Shown here piece after piece: positions 29,839 to 39,099 of a DNA stretch of 43,881 nucleotides (within the stretch, counting starts at the first letter, position 1; the number at the start of each line of letters is the position of its first letter). The notes below the pieces were generated by a model. That model had not been told where the DNA came from. It made no database searches and saw only the letters and a list, made by a program, of their open reading frames with translations. The stretch is from Planctomycetes bacterium GWF2_41_51. GTDB lineage: Bacteria > Planctomycetota > Phycisphaerae > Sedimentisphaerales > UBA12454. The DNA lies in NCBI GenBank assembly GCA_001825665.1, contig MHXZ01000079.1, positions 1 to 43,881 on the forward strand. The letters are read 5' to 3'. The position numbers were made by a program, and so were the translations under genes.

Positions 29839-29912
29839 GCGCTCGTAGCTCAGTAGGATAGAGCGTTGGTTTCCTAAACCAAAGGTCACAGGTTCGAATC
29901 CTGTCGGGCGTA
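29839..29912 (+). tRNA. tRNA-Arg (anticodon CCT)
   Basis: A complete 74-base cloverleaf is visible. The acceptor arms GCGCTCG (29839-29845) and CGGGCGT (29905-29911) pair with two G-T wobbles; the discriminator is A29912. The D arm is GCTC/GAGC. The anticodon stem TTGGT/ACCAA holds loop TTCCTAA with anticodon CCT, which reads AGG. The T arm is ACAGG/CCTGT with loop TTCGAAT. CCA is not encoded. Its 3' third overlaps the end of the serine recombinase gene on the other strand, marking it as the integration site of the island. Confidence 0.95.
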
Positions 29913-31394
29913 TTCAACAGGACGGTTCGCGTTTTTTGCCAGTATTGCGAACGGTAACCTGTAGTCTGCACAAAGACTTACGCCATTTAATTCCAAGTTC
30001 GAGAACACCGAATTTGCGATTTGGCGTTTTTGTGGCGGTTTGAACGTAACATATTGTCTTGAAAGGTCTTGTGTGAGTTCGAGAATTTTCATCGGTCTGC
30101 CGTTATCTTCCTGAACACCTGATTTGACCTGTTCAAAACGATGTTGCAGCAAAGTTACTTCACTTTGCCGCTCTTGTGCCAGCCTCATGAATCCATCAGC
30201 GAGGCTGTCTTGTGCTTGAGCGGCCCTAAGCAGAATAGCATCTACGGTCTTTTGCGATTCAGATATCTTCCTTTTTAACGACTTCAATTCATTTTCAACA
30301 TCAGAGACTTCCTGAATTGAAGACCTTTTCAGGTACTCCAAGACCCAGTCATAAATGTCTTTGGGTAACACCAGCTTTTCCAGCAAGGACACGATTTGCA
30401 ATTCAATCTTTTGCTCCGGAACCCATGCCGGTTTTTCAACATGGTCAGTATGTCTTCGCTGAGCACAAATATAATATGTGTACTGTTTTTTGTGCGTTTC
30501 CGCTGTTACATTGTAACCACAATCAGCACATTTGATCAGCCCATGACCGTATGTAAAACTTCGTTTCTGAAGAGATTTGGTATTGCTGCGGCCATCGAGA
30601 ACATTCTGGACTTTTTGCCAAACCTTCTCGCTTACAATCGGCTCATGTTTGCCCTCGTAAATCTGACCATGCCAAAGTATTTTGCCAATATAAAATGGGT
30701 GACGAAGCATTCTCGCCAAATGAGAACGTGTCCACCTGCGTGTTTTTGCAGAAAAATACATCCCACGTTTGAAAAGTTCTTCTCGAAGTGTATCGATAGA
30801 ATACTGGCCAGTTGCCATCAACTTAAATATTGTACGGACATTTTCGACTTTTTCGGGATCAGGTGTCGGAAGTCGGGAATCTTTTGATTCCTTGACTGTC
30901 AGATAGCCGTATGGGGGCTTGTGGGGATATTCACCGGCTTCAATTTTACCTCGAAAACCTTTGTTGACCTCTTCTCGGAGATTATCAGTATACCATCGGG
31001 CCACAACACCCATTACGCCTACACTGAGTCGGCCTGCTGCGTTTTGGGGGAACTCCTGTGTAGCAAAGAAAATCTGTTTGTTTTTCTCTGTCTCCAAAGC
31101 TTCCAGCATGGCCAGATCCGTAATATTGCGACATGCACGGTCTACTTTGTGAAATACTGCTCCGTCTATTGTTGTATCTTTGCGGAGTCTGTCAATAATC
31201 TCCCGAAACCTCTTTCTCTCTTTTTGCTTGGATGCGGTTTCAATATACTGAACCGTATCGACAATTGTATAACCTTTGCGTTTTGCCCATTCGTGATTGG
31301 CCTGATTTTGTGCCTCAAGGCTGTACCCCTCGCCTTGTTCATTCGATGATACCCTGCAGATGTTAAGCAGTCTTAATGGCATGTTATTTTTCAT
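29886..31394 (-). CDS. Large serine recombinase (integrase)
   Basis: This is a 502-residue site-specific recombinase of the large serine type. The resolvase domain (about 7-150) starts LLNICRVSSNEQGEGYSLEAQ, with the nucleophile at Ser16 in the RVS motif. A recombinase domain (about 165-270) follows, with PPYGYLTV and RMLRHPFYIGKILW. A zinc ribbon (CADCGYN ... YYICAQRR, about 286-310) and a long coiled coil with an EL(K)SLKRKI pattern (about 355-430) complete it. The last nine residues, EYARQDSNL, and the stop are encoded by the antisense of the tRNA-Arg 3' end. It overlaps the small gene upstream by 11 bp, indicating translational coupling. It probably inserted the island; activity is inferred from intact motifs. 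Confidence 0.93.
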   Translation of the reverse strand: MKNNMPLRLLNICRVSSNEQGEGYSLEAQNQANHEWAKRKGYTIVDTVQYIETASKQKERKRFREIIDRLRKDTTIDGAVFHKVDRACRNITDLAMLEALETEKNKQIFFATQEFPQNAAGRLSVGVMGVVARWYTDNLREEVNKGFRGKIEAGEYPHKPPYGYLTVKESKDSRLPTPDPEKVENVRTIFKLMATGQYSIDTLREELFKRGMYFSAKTRRWTRSHLARMLRHPFYIGKILWHGQIYEGKHEPIVSEKVWQKVQNVLDGRSNTKSLQKRSFTYGHGLIKCADCGYNVTAETHKKQYTYYICAQRRHTDHVEKPAWVPEQKIELQIVSLLEKLVLPKDIYDWVLEYLKRSSIQEVSDVENELKSLKRKISESQKTVDAILLRAAQAQDSLADGFMRLAQERQSEVTLLQHRFEQVKSGVQEDNGRPMKILELTQDLSRQYVTFKPPQKRQIANSVFSNLELNGVSLCADYRLPFAILAKNANRPVEYARQDSNL

Positions 31395-31587
31395 AATTGC
31401 TGCCCTTGTTAGCTAAAACCTGTAAAAACTGGCCAAAATCCTCTATTATCCGGTCGGCCTCTTCTTCGGAAATCGGCCTTCCTGCTACTTTGGACCAGAC
31501 ACGCTGTGTGTATTTACGAAATTCTACCACACCTTTTATGTCGGGCGCAAGTGCTTTTTTAGGATTTTTTTCAGCTATGCTTATCAT
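31384..31587 (-). CDS. Small conserved recombinase-linked protein
   Basis: The 67-residue acidic/basic protein has a helical core VVEFRKYTQRVWSKVAGRP followed by an EEEADRIIEDFGQFLQVLA helix. It has no membrane segment or cysteine. Its 3' end overlaps the recombinase start by 11 bp, so it is translated from the same message just before the integrase. Short proteins of this pattern (GRPxSxEEAxxII...) sit in front of serine recombinases in other genomes as I recall, but no function is known to me. It could be a regulator or recombination directionality factor; that is speculation. Confidence 0.65.
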   Translation of the reverse strand: MISIAEKNPKKALAPDIKGVVEFRKYTQRVWSKVAGRPISEEEADRIIEDFGQFLQVLANKGSNYEK

Positions 31588-31657: not shown

Positions 31658-32599
31658 TTACAGCCAGACAACTCCGGCATCGTCTTTTTTGATTTCGATA
31701 ATATCTTCTTCACTTAATCCTGAGGGGTATTGCAAAAACCTCATCTTACTAATGTCGTAGTATTTCCGCATACTTCGTTGTACATTCTTGATTAAACGCA
31801 CTACATAATCCGACCAGTTTTGCCTTATGCGGATATTCTTAATAGCAGCAGCTTCTACACGGTAGCCTTCGGCTTCAAGTGCCTGCTCTGTTAGTATTAG
31901 GCCTCTGCCTCGCGGATTGACGGCTTCGGCAAAGATTTCTTCAACGCCGCAGTCAACGGCAAATTTAACCAATTCATCGATTTGGGCAGGTGAATCCGCA
32001 ACCGAAGGTAAGATCGGACAGAACATTCCATAGGTTCGCAATCCTCGTTCGTGGGCTTGCCTAACGGTTTCCATTCGTTCTTCGATGCTGGATGCATTTG
32101 GTTCAATTATCTTGATGCGATTGCTCTTATCCGGCGTTGCTGTAATGCTTAAGCCAACAAGTACACGGTCGGAATGTTTTTCGATGAGGTCAAAATCATT
32201 TTTTACGGCAGCATTTTTGGTTAAAATGCGAACCGTCCAGTCAAGCTCTGAAAGAATCGCTTCCAGGCATTTTCTGCCAAGATCATGTTCCTGCGCTTCA
32301 GGCGACCACGCATCTACAGTTGTGCAGAGTTGAACCATCGCTCTTTTCCTGATCTTGCGGGCATCACGAGCCACCCGTTGAGGGGTGGTGGGATCGACAA
32401 TTGCGTAGCCATTATCAAATGCCGATAAGCCTAATTCTTTAAATGCGTGGTGGACTCTGAGCATTGCACCTGTCGAGCAGTATGTGCATGCGTGTCCGCA
32501 TTTGAGGCCAATATTGACAGCAAATTGAGCTAACCCTTTTTTCTCAAATTCTTTTGTTCGACTGATACCATTCTTCAATTCCCATTCGTAAGTTTTCAT
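31658..32599 (-). CDS. Radical SAM protein, spore photoproduct lyase-like (COG1533 type)
   Basis: This is a radical S-adenosylmethionine enzyme. The iron-sulfur motif is Cys34-x3-Cys38-x2-Cys41 (KCGHACTYC), inside an N-terminal FAVNIGLKCGHAC block like that of SplB/COG1533 proteins. Further family features are TTVDAWSPEAQ, the RILTKNAAVKNDFDLI strand and LVGLSITATPDKSNRI near residue 150. The ATG at 32599 is preferred over 32644: an AGGAGT ribosome-binding site lies just upstream. The gene is last in the leftward series of membrane/chaperone genes, 25 bp after the preceding one. The substrate is unknown; COG1533 proteins include DNA photoproduct lyase and uncharacterised members in mobile regions. 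Confidence 0.85.
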   Translation of the reverse strand: MKTYEWELKNGISRTKEFEKKGLAQFAVNIGLKCGHACTYCSTGAMLRVHHAFKELGLSAFDNGYAIVDPTTPQRVARDARKIRKRAMVQLCTTVDAWSPEAQEHDLGRKCLEAILSELDWTVRILTKNAAVKNDFDLIEKHSDRVLVGLSITATPDKSNRIKIIEPNASSIEERMETVRQAHERGLRTYGMFCPILPSVADSPAQIDELVKFAVDCGVEEIFAEAVNPRGRGLILTEQALEAEGYRVEAAAIKNIRIRQNWSDYVVRLIKNVQRSMRKYYDISKMRFLQYPSGLSEEDIIEIKKDDAGVVWL

Positions 32600-32624
32600 A
32601 ATTGTACTCCTATGATTTAAATGA

Positions 32625-33080
32625 TTATTTGACAACAATTTCACTTTTGACCTTCGTTATCTGGTTTTCTTTTCTCTGTTGATCTATTGCAATGGCCTTA
32701 TTTTTGTGACCATAAAATGGTCTGAAAAAGCTGCTTACACCATCGGCGAACATCGCAAGATTTGCGACTACGAGCAGCAGAAGAAAACTCATTCCCAACG
32801 CCAGATAAGGCAACAAGATGGTATGGAATGTGTCTTCCTGGTTTTGTGAAGGGAGATTCTGTTGCAAGACTCCTGTGGCACCAGGTGGACTTTCATGCTG
32901 CTGCGGGAAAAATTCCACTACCCCAACAATAAACAGCATTGCCACACAGAGGGCGATCATAAAGCTGCCAAACCCCGAAAAAGTGGAGTGCCGGTTCAGT
33001 GCGTTCCATGTTGCCATAAACACAACTCCCAGTAGCGGCAGAATGATTAACCAGCCGTAATTTTCAACATTTGCTAACAT
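32625..33080 (-). CDS. Three-segment membrane protein
   Basis: The 151-residue protein has hydrophobic segments at about residues 8-25, 38-57 and 87-112. A polar Gln/Pro-rich loop (about 60-85) and a charged, Lys-rich C-terminus follow. The topology suggests an integral inner-membrane protein with its basic tail in the cytoplasm. A GGATCGGATT ribosome-binding region precedes the ATG. It belongs to the leftward gene series that starts at the Hsp70 fragment, separated from the next membrane gene by 211 bp holding a TGCCCG ... CGGGCA inverted repeat (about 33,182-33,222). I do not recognise the family. Confidence 0.6.
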   Translation of the reverse strand: MLANVENYGWLIILPLLGVVFMATWNALNRHSTFSGFGSFMIALCVAMLFIVGVVEFFPQQHESPPGATGVLQQNLPSQNQEDTFHTILLPYLALGMSFLLLLVVANLAMFADGVSSFFRPFYGHKNKAIAIDQQRKENQITKVKSEIVVK

Positions 33081-33291
33081 AATCCGATCCTTTCTTTTCG
33101 AGTTTTAGAAGTAACTTTGTTTGTTTCCATTGCATCGAATCTACCATACTGTTCTGACCCTGCGGTGCCTTTCGACGGAATTTGCCCGGAAATCTAACAC
33201 ACTGTTAACTGTCGGGCAGCGATATCCGGTCCAATCTTTTAATAGAGTCATCTTTGTCTGACTTGCCAACAGTCACTTGGGCATTTTACGG

Positions 33292-33585
33292 TTATCGTTT
33301 TCTTCTTTTTTGGGTTTTATTCCTAAGGGCCACGATGAATGACATCAGCTTAATCACTATGACGATTGTCCCTAAGACGGCAGACGGCAGAAGAACGATT
33401 TTCATCATATGATGTTTGAGACCCATCCCAATGATGGCGGGTATCAATATCGAAGACGCCAGAGATCCGAGCTTATTAAGTCCCAGAACTTCATTTGCAG
33501 AGCGAAACCCTAGAACTCCAATGGCGATTAAAATCGGCACCAACAGGATTATCTCTAATACATCGATTATGGTGAGAGTAACCAT
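33292..33585 (-). CDS. Small multi-pass membrane protein
   Basis: The 97-residue protein starts at an ATG at 33585 and has three hydrophobic stretches (about residues 6-24, 38-54 and 61-84) and a strongly basic tail ending KTQKRRKR. The in-frame start at 33657 is possible, but would overlap the preceding gene by 37 bp and add 24 polar residues. A GAAAG sequence upstream is the likely ribosome-binding site. The basic tail predicts a cytoplasmic C-terminus. Family not recognised; its position inside the Hsp70/vWA/J-like series suggests a membrane partner of those proteins. Confidence 0.6.
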   Translation of the reverse strand: MVTLTIIDVLEIILLVPILIAIGVLGFRSANEVLGLNKLGSLASSILIPAIIGMGLKHHMMKIVLLPSAVLGTIVIVIKLMSFIVALRNKTQKRRKR

Positions 33586-33620
33586 TGTACAGTTCTTTCT
33601 TTTCTGATTTCTCTGACTTG

Positions 33621-33905
33621 TTATAGAAGGATGACAAGCATCAAGCGTGTGATCCATAAAGAGAAAACCAACAGGTTAAATAATGTTCGCTGCGAATACG
33701 TTTTGTCGGTATACCTTGACACCAACCGCTGGAAACGATCCAGCACAACCGATATCAACGGATCGAGCACATCGACGATTTGTTTCAGCCAGGATGGTTT
33801 CCATCTTTGGTAGACGGCCTTTGCTAAAAAAATCAATAGCAGAATATCCATTGCGACAAATACCAGGTTGACCACGCTGATAAATAAATTTGTTAGTAAA
33901 CCCAT
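33621..33905 (-). CDS. Small membrane protein with a weak YggT-like look
   Basis: The 94-residue protein has a long N-terminal hydrophobic segment (about 5-30), a central amphipathic stretch (KPSWLKQIVDVLDPLISVVL) and a C-terminal hydrophobic segment (about 76-94). The DPLISVVLDRFQRLV part recalls one half of YggT proteins, but the match is weak. A very good AAAGGAGT ribosome-binding site lies 6-8 bp before the ATG at 33905. It begins 3 bp after the stop of the J-like gene, so it is firmly part of that operon. Function unknown. Confidence 0.65.
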   Translation of the reverse strand: MGLLTNLFISVVNLVFVAMDILLLIFLAKAVYQRWKPSWLKQIVDVLDPLISVVLDRFQRLVSRYTDKTYSQRTLFNLLVFSLWITRLMLVILL

Positions 33906-33908
33906 TTT

Positions 33909-34325
33909 CTATACTCCTTTCGCTGAACGCATGAATAAAACAGTAATGACCAGTAAGAACCAAACGATGAGAAAAAGCTTGGTTACGAATTTTGGAAATG
34001 GCACCATTTCAACTAAACTATCCCAATATTGGGACAACTCCTGTATTACATCCCAAATGGTTGTTGCCTTCGTCGTGTTTTGTCGAGTAGTCGTTGTTCT
34101 TTGCTTTTTAGGCCTGTTTGTTTTCGGTTGTTTCGTTTGCATGATCTTCCAGGCTGCCGTCAATTCGGTCAAATCAGACAGGGCCCGCTGACGAACTGAA
34201 CTGGGATTGCCCGGCAATATACGGATATGAAGCGCCTGCTGCTTTTGGCGGTAGGCTTTCTCTGCCGATTTGGGGCTGGCAGAAGCGGAAATACCTAAGA
34301 TTTTATGAGCATCTGTCTTTGTCAT
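33909..34325 (-). CDS. Degenerate J-domain protein with C-terminal membrane anchor
   Basis: Residues about 4-60 resemble a J domain (DAHKILGISASASPKSAEKAYRQKQQ... DLTELTAAWKIM), the module that activates Hsp70. The essential HPD tripeptide between helices II and III is missing; the loop reads HIRILPGN. A Lys/Thr-rich linker (about 65-90) leads to a single membrane segment (about 112-131) near the C-terminus, followed by a short basic end. ATG 34325 overlaps the vWA stop codon as ATGA and has AAAGGAG upstream, so it is chosen over 34343. Without HPD it may bind Hsp70 without stimulating it, or act as a scaffold. That is inference. Confidence 0.7.
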   Translation of the reverse strand: MTKTDAHKILGISASASPKSAEKAYRQKQQALHIRILPGNPSSVRQRALSDLTELTAAWKIMQTKQPKTNRPKKQRTTTTRQNTTKATTIWDVIQELSQYWDSLVEMVPFPKFVTKLFLIVWFLLVITVLFMRSAKGV

Positions 34326-35020
34326 TGATTGTCTCCTTTCCAAATCAGGCCTGTAGCCAATTGGCGATAGTGTTGTTTTAATGTGCGTGCATCTGCGATA
34401 AAGCGGTAATGATTCGTGCCATCCGGCTCTGTCGTTGCCACCTTTCGTAGTAGAGATTCATTTACGTCCTCGGGGCTGCCGCCGATACCGATGACATCTA
34501 TGACGGCACCGTACCGTTGTTTGAGTTTATCAGGGATGCTGATCGGGCAATTGCCGAAACCATCGGTCAAAAGGATAATCTGACTTCGACCGTTTAAGTC
34601 TATGTGGCTATGCAGTAAGCTTGTTGCCTGTTGTAAGCCCTGACCAATGTTGGTACTGCCTTCTGCCCTGATCGACCGTATACCCTGGATAATCTCCATG
34701 GAGTTGTTAATCGCTGTAGGAGTCACCATGACTTTAGCTTCATCATTAAACGCGATTACCGCTATGTTGGCATTTGCGTTTTGCCCTACCAAGGTACTTA
34801 AATACTCAATGGCAGCATCCTTCGCGGCCTCCAGTCGGTTTGGCAAATAATCTTCAGTTTGCATGCTAATCGAGCAGTCAATGATGATAATAATGAGTGT
34901 GGCAATACTATCGTGCAGAGCCGCCAACTGGCGGCCGGTTTGGGAAATCCCAAACCGGTCACCATTGATCGCCGATTGCAGCTTGTTATTGAAAGCCTGT
35001 ATCGTTGATAAAATGTTCAC
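34322..35020 (-). CDS. von Willebrand factor A (vWA) domain protein
   Basis: The 232-residue protein is essentially one vWA domain. The metal-ion-dependent adhesion site is complete: DxSxS at Asp48-Ser50-Ser52 (DCSISM), the Thr in EGSTNIGQGL near residue 121 and the Asp in ILLTDGFG near 153. It has no signal peptide, so it is cytoplasmic. Start is GTG, supported by AAAGGAC 7 bp upstream. It starts 15 bp after the Hsp70 fragment stop and its own stop overlaps the J-like start (ATGA), so all three are translated together. vWA proteins of this kind act as metal-dependent adaptors in complexes with ATPases or chaperones. Exact partner unknown; Hsp70 is the obvious candidate. Confidence 0.85.
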   Translation of the reverse strand: MNILSTIQAFNNKLQSAINGDRFGISQTGRQLAALHDSIATLIIIIIDCSISMQTEDYLPNRLEAAKDAAIEYLSTLVGQNANANIAVIAFNDEAKVMVTPTAINNSMEIIQGIRSIRAEGSTNIGQGLQQATSLLHSHIDLNGRSQIILLTDGFGNCPISIPDKLKQRYGAVIDVIGIGGSPEDVNESLLRKVATTEPDGTNHYRFIADARTLKQHYRQLATGLIWKGDNQ

Positions 35021-35035
35021 TCTATAGTCCTTTCT

Positions 35036-36250
35036 TTAGTTGCTGTGCCTGGAAACAAGCTGGTTTCGTTGATCATTAATCTGACTGTCAGAAAGTCCTG
35101 TGTGGAATTTGAACCTAATAGGTACCGGCTTATTGAGTACCTTGTCGCGAACCTTGATGTCCACCATACCCTCAGTGTCCATAGTCACCTTAAACTCAAT
35201 ACGACCATGGTTTTCATCTCCACTTGTTGGCTGGACATCCACCTCAACTTGTTGCAGAGGAGTGAAGTTGCTGGATAACTCTCCCGGCATCCCATCGATC
35301 AATTTAACCTTCACTGTCATTTGTTGGGCATCAATGGGGCTAAAGCACTCGATAGCCTCAAAAGGAAGCTTCGCCCCGGAGGGAATGATAGGGCAATTGT
35401 ACTCTGTGTGATTATCAGCACTTTTTTTGGTAATCGCCGCAACACATAAATCTCTGCCTGCGATCATGCTTGGCTTAATCGAAGAAGCAAGGTAACGATA
35501 CTCTCCGATACTTAAAATGCTGTCTGGTTTACCAAAATACGCAGTGGCCAAGATGGCATTGCCTTTCGCCACAGCCATATCAGGATCGGTATCCGTTACG
35601 GGCTCTTTACCAAAGATTTCTTCCACGATCTCTGGAATAAACCGCAACCGGCTGCTGCCTCCCATCAAGATAATCCTGTCGATCTCAGAAGCATTCATCT
35701 CGGCCTTTTCAAGGGCTCTGCTGCAGCATTGCCGTAAGGTTTCGATGACAGGGGCAGCATCATCCTTGAGTTGGTCGTAGGTAATCTCCATCGAATGTCG
35801 ATGACTGCCAACTCTCAGATTGATAACCGCGGTGTCCTTATGTGCCAGTATTTCCTTGGCTTGTTTGCAGGCATCCAGAGCTTCCATCCATTCGGCCTGA
35901 TCTTTTTGAAGGTCAAGTTTATCCCCTTTGCTTTCGACAAACTTACGAACCCGCTGGAAGATGGCCTCATCGATATTGCTGCCGCCGCACTCAGAATCGC
36001 CATCGACGGCGATCTGTTCGATAGTTGCGTCAGCTTTTAATTGCAGGATACTGATGTCGAAGGTGCCGCCTCCAAAGTCGAATACAGCAATTTTCTGATC
36101 CAGCCCTTTGGAAAGGCCGTAAAAGGTCGCCCCTGCCGTTGGTTCGTCCACAATGTGTACCTTCTGGAAACCGGCGATGAGTCCGGCCTGCTTCGTCGCC
36201 AGTCTGGCCGGTCTCTTAAAGTAGGCTGGGACACTGATAGCCGAATATTG
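35036..36250 (-). pseudogene. Hsp70 (DnaK/HscC-like) with missing N-terminus
   Basis: The reading frame is Hsp70 from about its VPAYF motif onward: ISVPAYFKRPARLATKQAG and IVDEPTAGATFYGL (seen upstream of the GTG at 36151), then the phosphate-binding FDFGGGTFDISIL, ECGGSNIDEAI and ILMGGSSRLRFIP. A short substrate-binding beta domain follows; the helical lid is absent, as in HscC-like proteins. About the first 130 residues, including the first phosphate loop, are lost. Homology stops at about 36,247, where a stop codon is met and sequence of the rightward Res fragment begins. It could still be translated from the GTG at 36151, but would not fold as a working ATPase. Promoter and 5' end are therefore missing for the whole leftward operon. 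Confidence 0.85.
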
Positions 36251-36251
36251 T

Positions 36252-37982
36252 CAGGTCAATCGTCTGCCTATGGTGAAACCCTTTGTTTTGATTTCAACAA
36301 AAGATACAACTCACGCCGGCCAGATTAAAGCCTTCATCGAATCTGATAGTTTTTGTGAGGGAAGGTATGCTGGGAAAGTTATTGAAATCCATTCCGGCAC
36401 AAAGGGCGCTGAAAGCGATGAAAATGTAAGCCGGCTGCTTGCGGTCGAGCAGCCAACCAGTAATGTTGAAATCGTTATCCACGTTAATATGCTCAAAGAA
36501 GGCTGGGATGTAAAGAACCTTTACACCATTATTCCATTGAGAGCCTCGATTAGTGAAATATTGACTGAACAGACGATAGGACGAGGCTTGCGTTTGCCTT
36601 TTGATGGGAAAATAACCGGAGAATACGACCTCGATGCCCTTGAGATTATTTCTCACGATCAATATGCCAAATTGATACAAGAAGCAAAAGACAGTCCCAT
36701 TTTCAAATTTAAAGAGCTTAATGAAGATGACTTAAGGCCTGTCAAGACAGTTCCGGTAGCTCATAAGTTTATTGACTTAGATAATGTTCTGGACCGCATT
36801 TCCAAAGGAGGTAATGTTCTGTTTACATCGGAATTGACAAATGAGCAAAGGCTAAATGAAGTCGTGCAGGAAATTGTTGCCGAGGAAACTGCAAGGTATG
36901 AAATGATTACGAAGCTGGGTGCAGAATCAGAAGAAGTAAAGCAGGTTATAAAAGAACAGCCGACACTTTTTGAAGTTGCGGCTCCAACAGAAGCAGCAAA
37001 GAAATTTGATCCAGCCGTTCTGGAAGCGGATTTAAAAGATAGATTACGAAGATATGCCAGAGCAAGTATCGATGTGCCACACATTATCACCGAAACTTAC
37101 ACAGACAGAAAGCTGGAACCTTTTGATGTAAAAGTAAATATTGGTCCGTTCGAGTTGGTTGAGCAGCGAGTATTGACGCATGAGCTTGCCAGTGGTGAGG
37201 AAAGAATTGGCGAACAGCTTGATGTTATGGAAATTGAAAATCCAAGGGCTTTTCTGGCGGGCAGATTGATAGATACAATTGAAGAGTTGGATGTTGCAAA
37301 TGACAAAGAGGCTGTATTGGCTTTAGTGGATGGCTATATCTCTCAGATTGATAAGTCCGCAGATGATTTCAAAAAGATTACTCACCTTTATAGGGATGCG
37401 ATTATCAGAGACCTTAAAAATCAGGTCGAAAGCCATATACAGGATGAATCCAAAGTCGAAGCACAGGTTCGTAGCGGCTTTATAAAGTTCAGGCCTTATT
37501 CAAAAACCGTTCTTGAGAAAGACGGTATTGTGCCTTATACGCAGCAGGTGCCTCGTTCTGATGTGAAGCGTTATTTGTTTGAAGGTTTTGTGAAATCACT
37601 CTATCCACAAGTTACATTTGACTCTACGCCTGAGAAAGATTTCGCTGCAATCTTGGAGAAAGACCATGATGTGGTGAAGTGGATTCGTCCACCGGAGGGA
37701 AATATCCCAATTTTATATAAAGGGCGAAACTACAATCCGGACTTTATTGTTCAAACGAATATGACAAAATACATTATTGAAGTCAAGGCAAGAAATGAAC
37801 TTGAGCCTCAAATGAATCAGGAAGTAAAAGATAAAGCTATTGCGGCGATTCGCTGGTGTAAGCTCGCCTCAGATGTTGAAAAACAGTTTAAATGGGAATA
37901 CAAACTGATACCTGATGATATAATCAAGTCCGGCTATGACTTGAAATTTGTTCTCGGAAATTCAATAAATTGTGAACAGTAA
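36252..37982 (+). pseudogene. C-terminal half of a type III restriction Res subunit
   Basis: The open frame matches the second helicase lobe and nuclease of type III Res/DEAD-like restriction subunits: KPFVLISTKDTTHA, motif V VNMLKEGWDV, motif VI QTIGRGLRLP and, near the end, the PD-(D/E)xK nuclease signature NPDFIV ... IIEVKA. The first lobe with Walker A and DExx motifs, some 400-500 residues, is missing. In-frame codons continue upstream of the first ATG (36270) to about 36,252, where Hsp70 sequence on the other strand begins. The coding frame is otherwise intact for 570 codons. The ABC-3C gene follows 28 bp later on the same strand. Without the ATP-binding lobe it cannot be an active restriction enzyme. 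Confidence 0.85.
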
Positions 37983-38010: not shown

Positions 38011-39099
38011 ATGGCTAGTGATAATAAAGTTAATTCTAAGATGGAGCTTACAACAGAAAGCGTTGTAATGGGGCCGATAGTAAGCCCGGTGGATAGGATC
38101 AAACTTTACAGTCCGAATGAGTGGGAAGAATTCATAAAAGAATGGGCCGAATCCTTAAAATCTGATTATTACCATGTCGAACGATTAGGAGGAGCGGGTG
38201 ACATGGGGAGAGATATTGTGGCTTCCACCGGTGATCCAGCTACCTGCTGCCCCTGGGATAATTATCAATGTAAGCATTACGATCATAGTTTGATGCCTGG
38301 AGATATATGGGTAGAGCTCGGGAAATTATGTTATTACACCTTCATAAAAGAGTTCACTCTTCCGAGAAAATATTATTTTGTAGCTCCGCAAGGTATCGGA
38401 ACCAAACTGTACGATCTTTTAAGCAAACCAATAAAGATTAAGAAAGAGTTGATTTCTATTTGGGACAAAAAATGTAAGGATAAAATTGCCGCTAAGAATG
38501 AAATTCAATTAGATGGTAAATTTAAAGAATATGTTGAGGATTTTGACTTTAGTATTGTTTGGTATAAAAAAATTAGTGAAATTATAGAGCGGCATCGTAA
38601 AACAAATCTTCACATAGCTCGCTTTGGAGGAGGATTACCACTACGTCCGGCACCTGAATCTCCCCCCAGTAGTATCCAAAGCAAAGAAGTCAGATATGTA
38701 AGACAGCTTCTTGATGCCTATGGAGATGCTGCAAATACGCAGTATTCCAATCCAGATGAACTTAATTGTCACAAGACATATCGAAGTCATTTTGACCGTT
38801 CACGTGAAAGATTTTATTGTGCAGAATCACTACGTGTATTCTCAAATGATACACTTCCGCAGGGTGAATTTGATAAATTACAAGAGGAAATATATGATGG
38901 AGTTGTTGACATTGCCGAATCAAGTCATAGTAATGGATATGAAAGAGTTAAGGCTACAACAAATCAAGCAACAACAATTAATATTAACAGCCATCCCCTA
39001 AAAAGCTGTCTCAAAAATAATGACAAGAGTGGGATATGTCATCAATTGGCTAATAATAATAGACTTGTATGGGTGCCTCAAAATGACAAAAACAAGTAA
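38011..39099 (+). CDS. ABC-three-component (ABC-3C) system nuclease-type protein
   Basis: This 362-residue protein resembles the effector/C-terminal component of ABC-3C conflict systems. Residues about 30-130 look like a restriction-endonuclease fold, with RLGGAGDMGRDIV and NYQCKHYD giving an Asp ... Gln-x-Lys active-site pattern. The conserved ELGKLCYYTF, KYYFVAPQGIGTKLYDLL and ARFGGGLPLRP blocks follow, then RSRERFYCAESLRVFSNDTLP and the C-terminal GICHQLANNNRLVWVPQ. An AAGGAC ribosome-binding site lies before the ATG. It overlaps the middle-component gene by 17 bp, the typical ABC-3C arrangement, but the ABC ATPase is not present in the window. Likely antiphage or conflict role, probably inactive without its partners. 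Assignment is from memory of the family. Confidence 0.8.
   Translation: MASDNKVNSKMELTTESVVMGPIVSPVDRIKLYSPNEWEEFIKEWAESLKSDYYHVERLGGAGDMGRDIVASTGDPATCCPWDNYQCKHYDHSLMPGDIWVELGKLCYYTFIKEFTLPRKYYFVAPQGIGTKLYDLLSKPIKIKKELISIWDKKCKDKIAAKNEIQLDGKFKEYVEDFDFSIVWYKKISEIIERHRKTNLHIARFGGGLPLRPAPESPPSSIQSKEVRYVRQLLDAYGDAANTQYSNPDELNCHKTYRSHFDRSRERFYCAESLRVFSNDTLPQGEFDKLQEEIYDGVVDIAESSHSNGYERVKATTNQATTININSHPLKSCLKNNDKSGICHQLANNNRLVWVPQNDKNK

What the first reader, a model, noticed from the sequence alone, without database searches (positions are those of the whole stretch)
31658..36250. Candidate new membrane-linked Hsp70-vWA-J-like module with three small membrane proteins and a radical SAM enzyme
Seven genes on one strand are packed with overlaps or short gaps (ATGA overlap between vWA and J-like genes, 3 bp to the next membrane gene). 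They encode an HscC-like Hsp70, a complete-MIDAS vWA protein, a J-domain relative that has lost HPD but gained a membrane anchor, three small multi-pass proteins and a COG1533 radical SAM protein. I know of no described system with this set. A chaperone-driven membrane surveillance or conflict role is conceivable.
Basis: partly seen in the sequence, partly recalled or inferred. Interest (0 to 1): 0.75.

Follow-up and report, generated by a model that had tools for sequence, protein, structure and literature searches.

The report
Chaperone switch cassette on mobile element
The gene group is the damaged end of a mobile DNA element that carries its own chaperone-based control unit (Hsp70, a vWA protein and a modified J protein), and in sister elements the same slot is filled by a kinase/phosphatase, ubiquitin-like or tubulin unit, which suggests a plug-in switch for a shared DNA-pumping machine.

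Summary
The genes are real and on one strand, but the window's copy is incomplete. Its Hsp70 lacks about 124 N-terminal codons. It is cut at 36237-36246, head to head with a truncated type III Res gene. The block ends at a serine recombinase on tRNA-Arg, so it is the integrase-side part of an integrated element.

Complete relatives read: HerA/FtsK-like ATPase, PD-(D/E)xK-fold domain, 2-TM protein, GrpE, Hsp70, vWA, (J-like), small membrane proteins, small putative Xis, integrase, tRNA. Hsp70+vWA adjacency holds in 27 loci of about 20 genomes, mainly Planctomycetota. Seventeen control vWA loci show none of it. The host genome has three copies, one intact.

All module Hsp70s lack the lid but keep catalytic residues. 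The J-like gene occurs in exactly one of two Hsp70 clades and never has HPD; the matching Hsp70 surface is not conserved.

New here: the same ATPase carries other cassettes in that slot: kinase/PP2C/vWA (3 loci), E2-E1 (4), FHA-tubulin (2). On the ATPase tree cassette type is scattered, so cassettes appear to have been exchanged repeatedly. I found no description of this platform in the papers searched. Function (defence/exclusion or element transfer) is inferred.

The parts
29839..29912 (+). tRNA-Arg (CCT), likely integration site of the element
   Evidence: ARAGORN; recombinase gene ends inside it; an 85%-identical recombinase lies at the same tRNA type in L060
29886..31394 (-). large serine recombinase (integrase), 502 aa
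   Evidence: Pfam Resolvase 1.4e-19, Recombinase 1.1e-16, Zn_ribbon_recom 1.2e-8
31384..31587 (-). 67-aa gene paired with the serine recombinase (possible directionality factor, inferred)
   Evidence: 70% identical over 60 aa to the gene in the same place in L060; no Pfam match
31658..32599 (-). radical SAM protein (COG1533-like), element accessory
   Evidence: Pfam Radical_SAM 4.5e-9; 66% and 65% identical to proteins at the same end of a tubulin-cassette element (L128) and a Ubl-cassette element (L139); no NCBIfam cutoff met
32625..33080 (-). small 3-TM membrane protein (TM3 family, second copy)
   Evidence: aligned with TM3 proteins of other module loci
33292..33585 (-). small 3-TM membrane protein (TM3 family, first copy; start ATG 33585)
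   Evidence: same alignment
33621..33905 (-). small 2-TM membrane protein (TM95 family)
   Evidence: family alignment; profile hit 8e-35, window is one of the seeds; TM95 also follows Ubl cassettes; no Pfam family
33909..34325 (-). J-like domain without HPD followed by one TM helix
   Evidence: start ATG 34325 in ATGA overlap with the vWA stop
34322..35020 (-). vWA protein with complete MIDAS, 232 aa
   Evidence: Pfam VWA_2 2.3e-22; subfamily alignments
35036..36241 (-). 5'-truncated Hsp70 (401 codons left; about 124 N-terminal codons missing; family naturally lacks the lid)
36237..36246 (.). junction of truncated Hsp70 with truncated type III Res gene (head to head; 6-7 bp fit both reading frames)
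36246..37982 (+). 5'-truncated type III restriction Res-like gene (neighbour, not part of the module)
   Evidence: PADLOC REase_III 3.3e-71 matching model positions 247-521; plasmid homologues align from residue 8 of the read-through frame

Best explanation
The block is the integrase-proximal part of a tRNA-integrated mobile element whose complete form encodes a HerA/FtsK-type ATPase with a wHTH and a PD-(D/E)xK-fold domain, a zinc-binding protein in some, small membrane proteins, a small putative excisionase and an integrase. Between ATPase and integrase sits an exchangeable regulatory cassette. Here it is GrpE, a lid-less Hsp70, vWA and a membrane-anchored J-like protein without HPD; elsewhere it is PP2C/kinase/vWA, E2-E1 (Ubl) or FHA-tubulin. 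Proposed mechanism (inferred): the membrane-held J-like and small TM proteins, with vWA, recruit Hsp70; its ATP cycle, reset by GrpE, clamps or releases the ATPase-nuclease complex, keeping it off until a disturbance (invading DNA or a competing element) titrates the chaperone away, after which the ATPase processes DNA. It would be a threshold switch for a DNA-pumping effector in defence or element-element exclusion. The window's copy lost GrpE, the ATPase and the Hsp70 N-terminus and is probably inactive.
For: Shown by sequence: Hsp70 next to vWA in 27 loci and integrase in 21 of 23 loci with room; 0 of 17 controls. tRNA abuts the integrase in most. GrpE in complete loci. Walker A GxGK and an acidic Walker B-type residue invariant in the ATPases. 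REase fold modelled at pLDDT 88 and matched to PD-(D/E)xK nucleases. Cassette swap: TerY-P type in L043, L141, L151; E2-E1 in L131, L146, L129, L139; FHA-tubulin in L128, L145. On the HerA tree cassette labels need 8 changes (minimum 3; shuffled mean 8.6) and starred branches force at least 5 for the Hsp70 label. Hsp70 catalytic D8, K70, E171, D194, T199, D201 conserved; lid absent; R167 and linker not conserved, matching the HPD-less J; J-like gene in 8 of 8 loci of one Hsp70 clade and 0 of 13 of the other. For a conflict role: published GAP1-N2 conflict neighbourhoods show the same alternative themes, tubulin+vWA, HSP70+GrpE+DnaJ, kinase+PP2C+vWA (PMC7159879); PADLOC mad8/HerA-type hits to the ATPase; caspases upstream of the cassette in L055.
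Against: No experiment exists. The near-constant integrase link equally fits an element backbone for transfer or maintenance. The REase-like domain has ExE where ExK is usual, so cleavage is uncertain. PADLOC lists no known system for Hsp70, vWA, J-like or GrpE. Physical contact between cassette and ATPase is inferred from gene order only. Cassettes other than Hsp70 rest on 2-4 loci each.
Confidence: 0.45

Rival explanations
1. The HerA/FtsK-type ATPase with wHTH and REase-like domain plus small membrane proteins is the element's own DNA-transfer machine, comparable in logic to TraB plus Spd proteins of actinomycete integrative conjugative elements, and the Hsp70/vWA/J cassette assembles or gates it at the membrane.
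For: Near-constant link to integrase, small HTH/Xis-like gene and tRNA; archaeo-eukaryotic-type primase in several loci (L008, L044, L054, L058); several small membrane proteins in the same operon; integrase and module shuffle.
Against: No relaxase or T4SS identified among scanned genes; no att repeat found within about 50 kb in G014 or C87, nor within shorter ranges elsewhere; exchange of the regulatory cassette is not an obvious need of a transfer machine; L055 has the cassette without integrase or HerA.
Confidence: 0.33
2. The window copy is only an assembly artefact: Hsp70 and Res halves were joined wrongly and the element is intact in the organism. (This concerns the truncation only and is compatible with the explanations above.)
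For: The window is a whole contig of a draft genome of 138 contigs; both genes are cut at the same point.
Against: Only 6-7 bp fit both sides, shorter than usual assembly overlaps; no orphan Hsp70 N-terminus or extra module GrpE elsewhere in the genome; the C8 copy is also 5'-truncated and frameshifted.
Confidence: 0.25
3. A housekeeping or stress chaperone set (HscC/DjlC-like) that happens to sit near integrases.
For: E. coli hscC is adjacent to djlC, a co-chaperone.
Against: Patchy presence (7 of 392 genomes of the phylum); always with vWA; HPD absent; not orthologous to DnaK, HscA or HscC.
Confidence: 0.04

Closest known systems
GAP1-N2 GTPase-centric conflict systems (Kaur et al. 2020, PMC7159879)
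   Same: Same alternative partner sets around a constant core: tubulin+vWA, HSP70+GrpE+DnaJ, kinase+PP2C+vWA.
   Different: Core there is a GAP1/GTPase in actinobacteria and firmicutes; here a HerA ATPase with REase-fold domain in integrase-linked elements of Planctomycetota and neighbours; no GAP1/GTPase seen in the proteins scanned; Ubl E2-E1 cassette added.
TerY-P triad (vWA, PP2C, kinase), including its links to FtsK/HerA ATPases with REase-like factors in CoCoNuT loci (PMC11090510, citing Anantharaman 2012)
   Same: vWA with MIDAS plus a two-enzyme switch beside an FtsK/HerA ATPase and REase-like protein; in L043, L141 and L151 a triad or its kinase/phosphatase pair itself occupies the slot.
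   Different: In the window type the kinase/phosphatase pair is replaced by GrpE/Hsp70 and a J-like membrane protein; no McrBC/CoCoNuT genes were identified.
Mads8/HerA ATPases of MADS and HerA-nuclease defence systems
   Same: ATPase relationship (PADLOC mad8 5.8e-10; HerA 0.009).
   Different: No known defence-system model matched the cassette proteins tested; composition differs.
HscC-DjlB/DjlC of E. coli and mitochondrial Pam16/Pam18-type J-like regulators (latter from general knowledge)
   Same: Specialised Hsp70 with a membrane J-type partner; Pam16 is also HPD-less.
   Different: vWA partner, lid fully absent, R167 contact not conserved, element-borne.
Actinomycete integrative and conjugative elements (general knowledge)
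   Same: tRNA site, Int/Xis, primase in some, FtsK-type ATPase, small membrane proteins.
   Different: Transfer not shown; chaperone/kinase/Ubl/tubulin cassettes have no counterpart known to me.

Membership tests
GAP1-N2 / DO-GTPase conflict systems | GAP1 or TRAFAC GTPase component | tested here: not met
   No such domain in module-neighbour proteins scanned with Pfam; not every neighbour was scanned
GAP1-N2 / DO-GTPase conflict systems | HSP70 + GrpE + DnaJ partner set | tested here: met
   GrpE and Hsp70 in complete loci; J-like in 8 loci
MoxR-vWA ternary systems | MoxR-type AAA+ ATPase beside the vWA | tested here: not met
   No MoxR match in scanned module neighbours; only a RuvB-like AAA in L044
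TerY-P triad | vWA + PP2C + Ser/Thr kinase | tested here: not met
   Not met in the window or Hsp70-type loci; met in L043; in L141 kinase and PP2C found (PP2C just below cutoff) and the 269-aa protein read as vWA by motif only
DnaK / HscA orthologues | NCBIfam equivalog cutoff | tested here: not met
   Complete module Hsp70s score at most about 290 bits against cutoffs of 620-1019
HscC | closest relationship to HscC | tested here: not met
   HscC groups with DnaK/HscA references (100/99) apart from both module clades; its branch is long
J-domain co-chaperones | J fold | tested here: met
   Model and PDB matches; Foldseek E-values are weak (0.07 at best) because the domain is short
J-domain co-chaperones | HPD motif that triggers Hsp70 ATPase | tested here: not met
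   IxPGN/PGT in place of HPD in most rows; HPD in none of 7 aligned; DnaK R167 not conserved in partners
PD-(D/E)xK nucleases (REase-like partner) | core fold and acidic metal ligands | tested here: met
   fold searched for the split 120-aa form
PD-(D/E)xK nucleases (REase-like partner) | catalytic ExK lysine | tested here: inconclusive
   ExE in all 7 aligned, with a conserved K 12 residues later
tRNA-integrating mobile elements | integrase next to tRNA | tested here: met
tRNA-integrating mobile elements | direct att repeat at the far end | tested here: inconclusive
   None found in the stretches searched
AICE-type conjugative elements | DNA transfer between cells by the FtsK-type ATPase | not testable with these tools
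   needs mating experiments

The most novel reading that the evidence does not exclude
A new class of integrative elements, patchy and rare in Planctomycetota and neighbouring phyla, built on one HerA-nuclease machine with a plug-in regulatory slot that has repeatedly swapped between chaperone (Hsp70/GrpE/vWA/J-like), phosphorylation, ubiquitin-like and tubulin cassettes, with the Hsp70 cassette using an HPD-less membrane J-like protein and a lid-less Hsp70 in a non-canonical switch.
Probability: 0.5. Interest if true: 0.85.

Novelty: new variant of a known kind. Interest (0 to 1): 0.72.

Why it matters
Chaperone, kinase, ubiquitin-like and tubulin modules have each been proposed as parts of bacterial conflict systems. 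Finding them exchanged in one slot of one platform would argue that they do the same job, and would give a comparative set to learn what that job is. It also offers a natural test of how an Hsp70 works when the lid, the J-domain trigger and its docking residue are missing together.

Tried and rejected
ParM-like actin instead of Hsp70 in L045-L047: rejected, Pfam HSP70 6.9e-88. TM95 as YggT-like: no Pfam support in any of 10 members. att direct repeats: a 13-bp match in G033 was inside a gene and is chance. MreB at C10 first taken as a broken Hsp70: rejected. Viral origin: no match in IMG/VR contigs by vWA and one weak phage hit not pursued; plasmids none. The HerA scan of viral contigs could not be run because the alignment had no conserved stretch. 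Literature searches for MADS gene roles returned only unrelated papers. Several other HerA loci (for example L130, L135, L136, L138, L140, L147) lie in different surroundings and were not used for the cassette claim.
Full report
What is in the window. Reading the minus strand from 36241 down: a 5'-truncated Hsp70, a vWA protein, a J-like protein with one TM helix, a 2-TM protein, two related 3-TM proteins, a radical SAM protein, a 67-aa protein and a large serine recombinase whose gene runs into tRNA-Arg. The vWA/J-like ATGA overlap and the 3-bp gap are as described. The MIDAS residues are complete. The J-like protein scores below the Pfam cutoff, but its model has the three J helices at high confidence and the top PDB matches are mostly J domains.

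The copy is broken. The Hsp70 homology starts at Pfam position 137, which is residue A of AISVPAYF in the alignment. On the other strand a type III Res-like gene starts in mid-protein: PADLOC REase_III matches from model position 247, and plasmid homologues align from residue 8 of the read-through frame. The two genes meet head to head within 36237-36246, where 6-7 bp fit both frames. No loose Hsp70 N-terminus or second module GrpE exists elsewhere in the 138-contig genome. The C8 copy is also 5'-truncated and frameshifted. Decay of old copies is the simpler reading, but I cannot exclude a misjoin.

Same genome, three copies. C8 (L007) and C87 (L008) carry Hsp70, vWA, J-like and an integrase next to tRNA-Asp and tRNA-Arg(tcg). 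Only C87 is complete, with GrpE and a 697-aa ATPase upstream. The vWAs are 38 and 33% identical to the window's, so these are not recent duplicates.

Relatives. A vWA profile found family members in relatives and, in one pattern-based scan of 84,980 species, 23 loci, mostly Planctomycetota plus Lentisphaerota, Hydrogenedentota and Pontiella. A six-frame profile table gives 27 loci from about 20 genomes with Hsp70 next to this vWA. Seventeen control vWA loci from the same search have no Hsp70, GrpE, J-like, small TM or integrase hit, although their flanks are only about 1.5 kb. Twenty-one of 23 loci with room have an integrase, and most of these have a tRNA at its end. Prevalence is low: 7 of 392 genomes of the phylum. 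Phages, plasmids and viral contigs gave nothing beyond one weak phage hit.

The full operon. Upstream of Hsp70 lies GrpE (Pfam GrpE 4.2e-10, 7.3e-7, 1.9e-8). Before that come, in many loci, a small 2-TM protein and a HerA/FtsK-type ATPase with invariant Walker A and an acidic Walker B-type residue. The ATPase ends in a wHTH-like and a REase-like region, the latter a separate protein of about 120 aa in some loci. That protein models at pLDDT 88 and matches PD-(D/E)xK proteins such as Can2, Bax1 and XisH. Its active site has D and ExE rather than ExK, so activity is open. Downstream come TM95, TM3, a small putative Xis (HTH_17 5.7e-7 in L040) and the integrase.

Hsp70 and J-like. All module Hsp70s keep the catalytic residues but end after the beta part of the substrate domain: the lid columns are 96% gaps. 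In DnaK numbering R167 and linker 389-393 are not conserved. From general knowledge these take part in J-domain docking. The J-like proteins have no HPD; most have IxPGN or PGT in that loop. Three of them (L008, L042, L044) have a PEGA-like domain, recognised by eye, after the TM helix. On the Hsp70 tree the eight loci with a J-like gene form one clade (93/84 including L051; 100/99 without it), and the 13 without form the other side (100/100). Trigger and receptor surface have therefore diverged together, which predicts a non-canonical partnership.

Cassette exchange. Searching with the ATPase profile found the same ATPase in other surroundings. In the slot between ATPase and integrase I found: PP2C, kinase and vWA (L043 by Pfam and profile; L141, where the vWA is read from its motif only; L151 by profile, PP2C and kinase only); Prok-E2_E and ThiF-type E1 (L131, L146, L129, L139), with TM95 following in three of the four; and an FHA protein with Tubulin_2 (L128 at 4.7e-6, just below the Pfam cutoff; L145 at 6.3e-18; FHA weak in L128). 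Integrase was not seen within the fetched stretch of L128, L129 and L145. On a tree of 26 ATPases cassette type needs 8 changes against a minimum of 3, hardly fewer than shuffled labels (mean 8.6), and well-supported branches force at least 5 for the Hsp70 label. Alignment over 722 columns of divergent proteins and one very long branch (L051) call for caution, but the mixing is supported at several starred nodes. The radical SAM protein travels across types: 66% identity with the tubulin-type L128 and 65% with the Ubl-type L139. The integrase shuffles too: the window recombinase is 85% identical to that of L060, while the two Hsp70s are 24% identical.

Comparison with the literature. Kaur et al. 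2020 (PMC7159879) report GAP1-N2 GTPase neighbourhoods with three non-overlapping themes: tubulin+vWA, HSP70+GrpE with DnaJ, and kinase+PP2C+vWA. The same set recurs here on a different core. The CoCoNuT paper (PMC11090510) describes TerY-like vWA genes beside FtsK/HerA ATPases and REase-like proteins, and cites TerY-P-like modules as stand-alone antiphage systems. No paper found describes the HerA platform with an Hsp70/GrpE/vWA/J-like cassette; the library holds open-licence papers only.

Mechanism. Shown: gene order, domain content, tree patterns and the loss of canonical J-Hsp70 contact features. Inferred: that the cassette regulates the ATPase, that it acts as a threshold switch at the membrane, and that the output is DNA processing against invaders or rival elements. 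The main rival is a transfer machine of the element itself. The data do not separate the two strongly; cassette exchange, the parallel with conflict systems and the caspase genes in L055 tip me slightly to conflict.

Noticed in passing
window 38011-39099: LmuA-like protein (PADLOC LmuA 2.2e-128; Pfam ABC-3C CTD6 1.6e-46) next to the truncated type III Res gene; no LmuB or LmuC was identified among the adjacent genes scanned.
   Followed up: partly
L055:4172-7263: Two caspase-domain proteins (Pfam Peptidase_C14) directly upstream of GrpE-Hsp70-vWA in Pontiellaceae B12227, without integrase or HerA: possible alternative effector for the cassette.
   Followed up: partly
L044:15981-19500: By reading the protein starts, cas3-, cas5- and cas8-like genes (type I-C style CRISPR-Cas) beside the element in G033; not tested with profiles.
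   Followed up: no
L007:7247-11077: KAP-family NTPase of 1276 aa upstream of the truncated Hsp70 in contig C8 (Pfam KAP_NTPase 4.1e-27).
   Followed up: no
L044:8347-9318: RuvB-like AAA protein inserted between vWA and the J-like gene in G033.
   Followed up: no
L146:7221-7442: 73-aa protein before the E2 gene that looks like a ubiquitin-like protein by eye; no Pfam match.
   Followed up: partly
L008:14167-14586: Treble-clef/FYVE-IBR-like zinc protein (2e-5, just below cutoff) upstream of the ATPase; other Cys-rich proteins precede the ATPase in several loci.
   Followed up: partly
L072: Module fragment in a contig binned as Actinomycetota carries a 75-aa gene with the same start sequence as the planctomycete loci L059/L063; likely mis-binned.
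   Followed up: no
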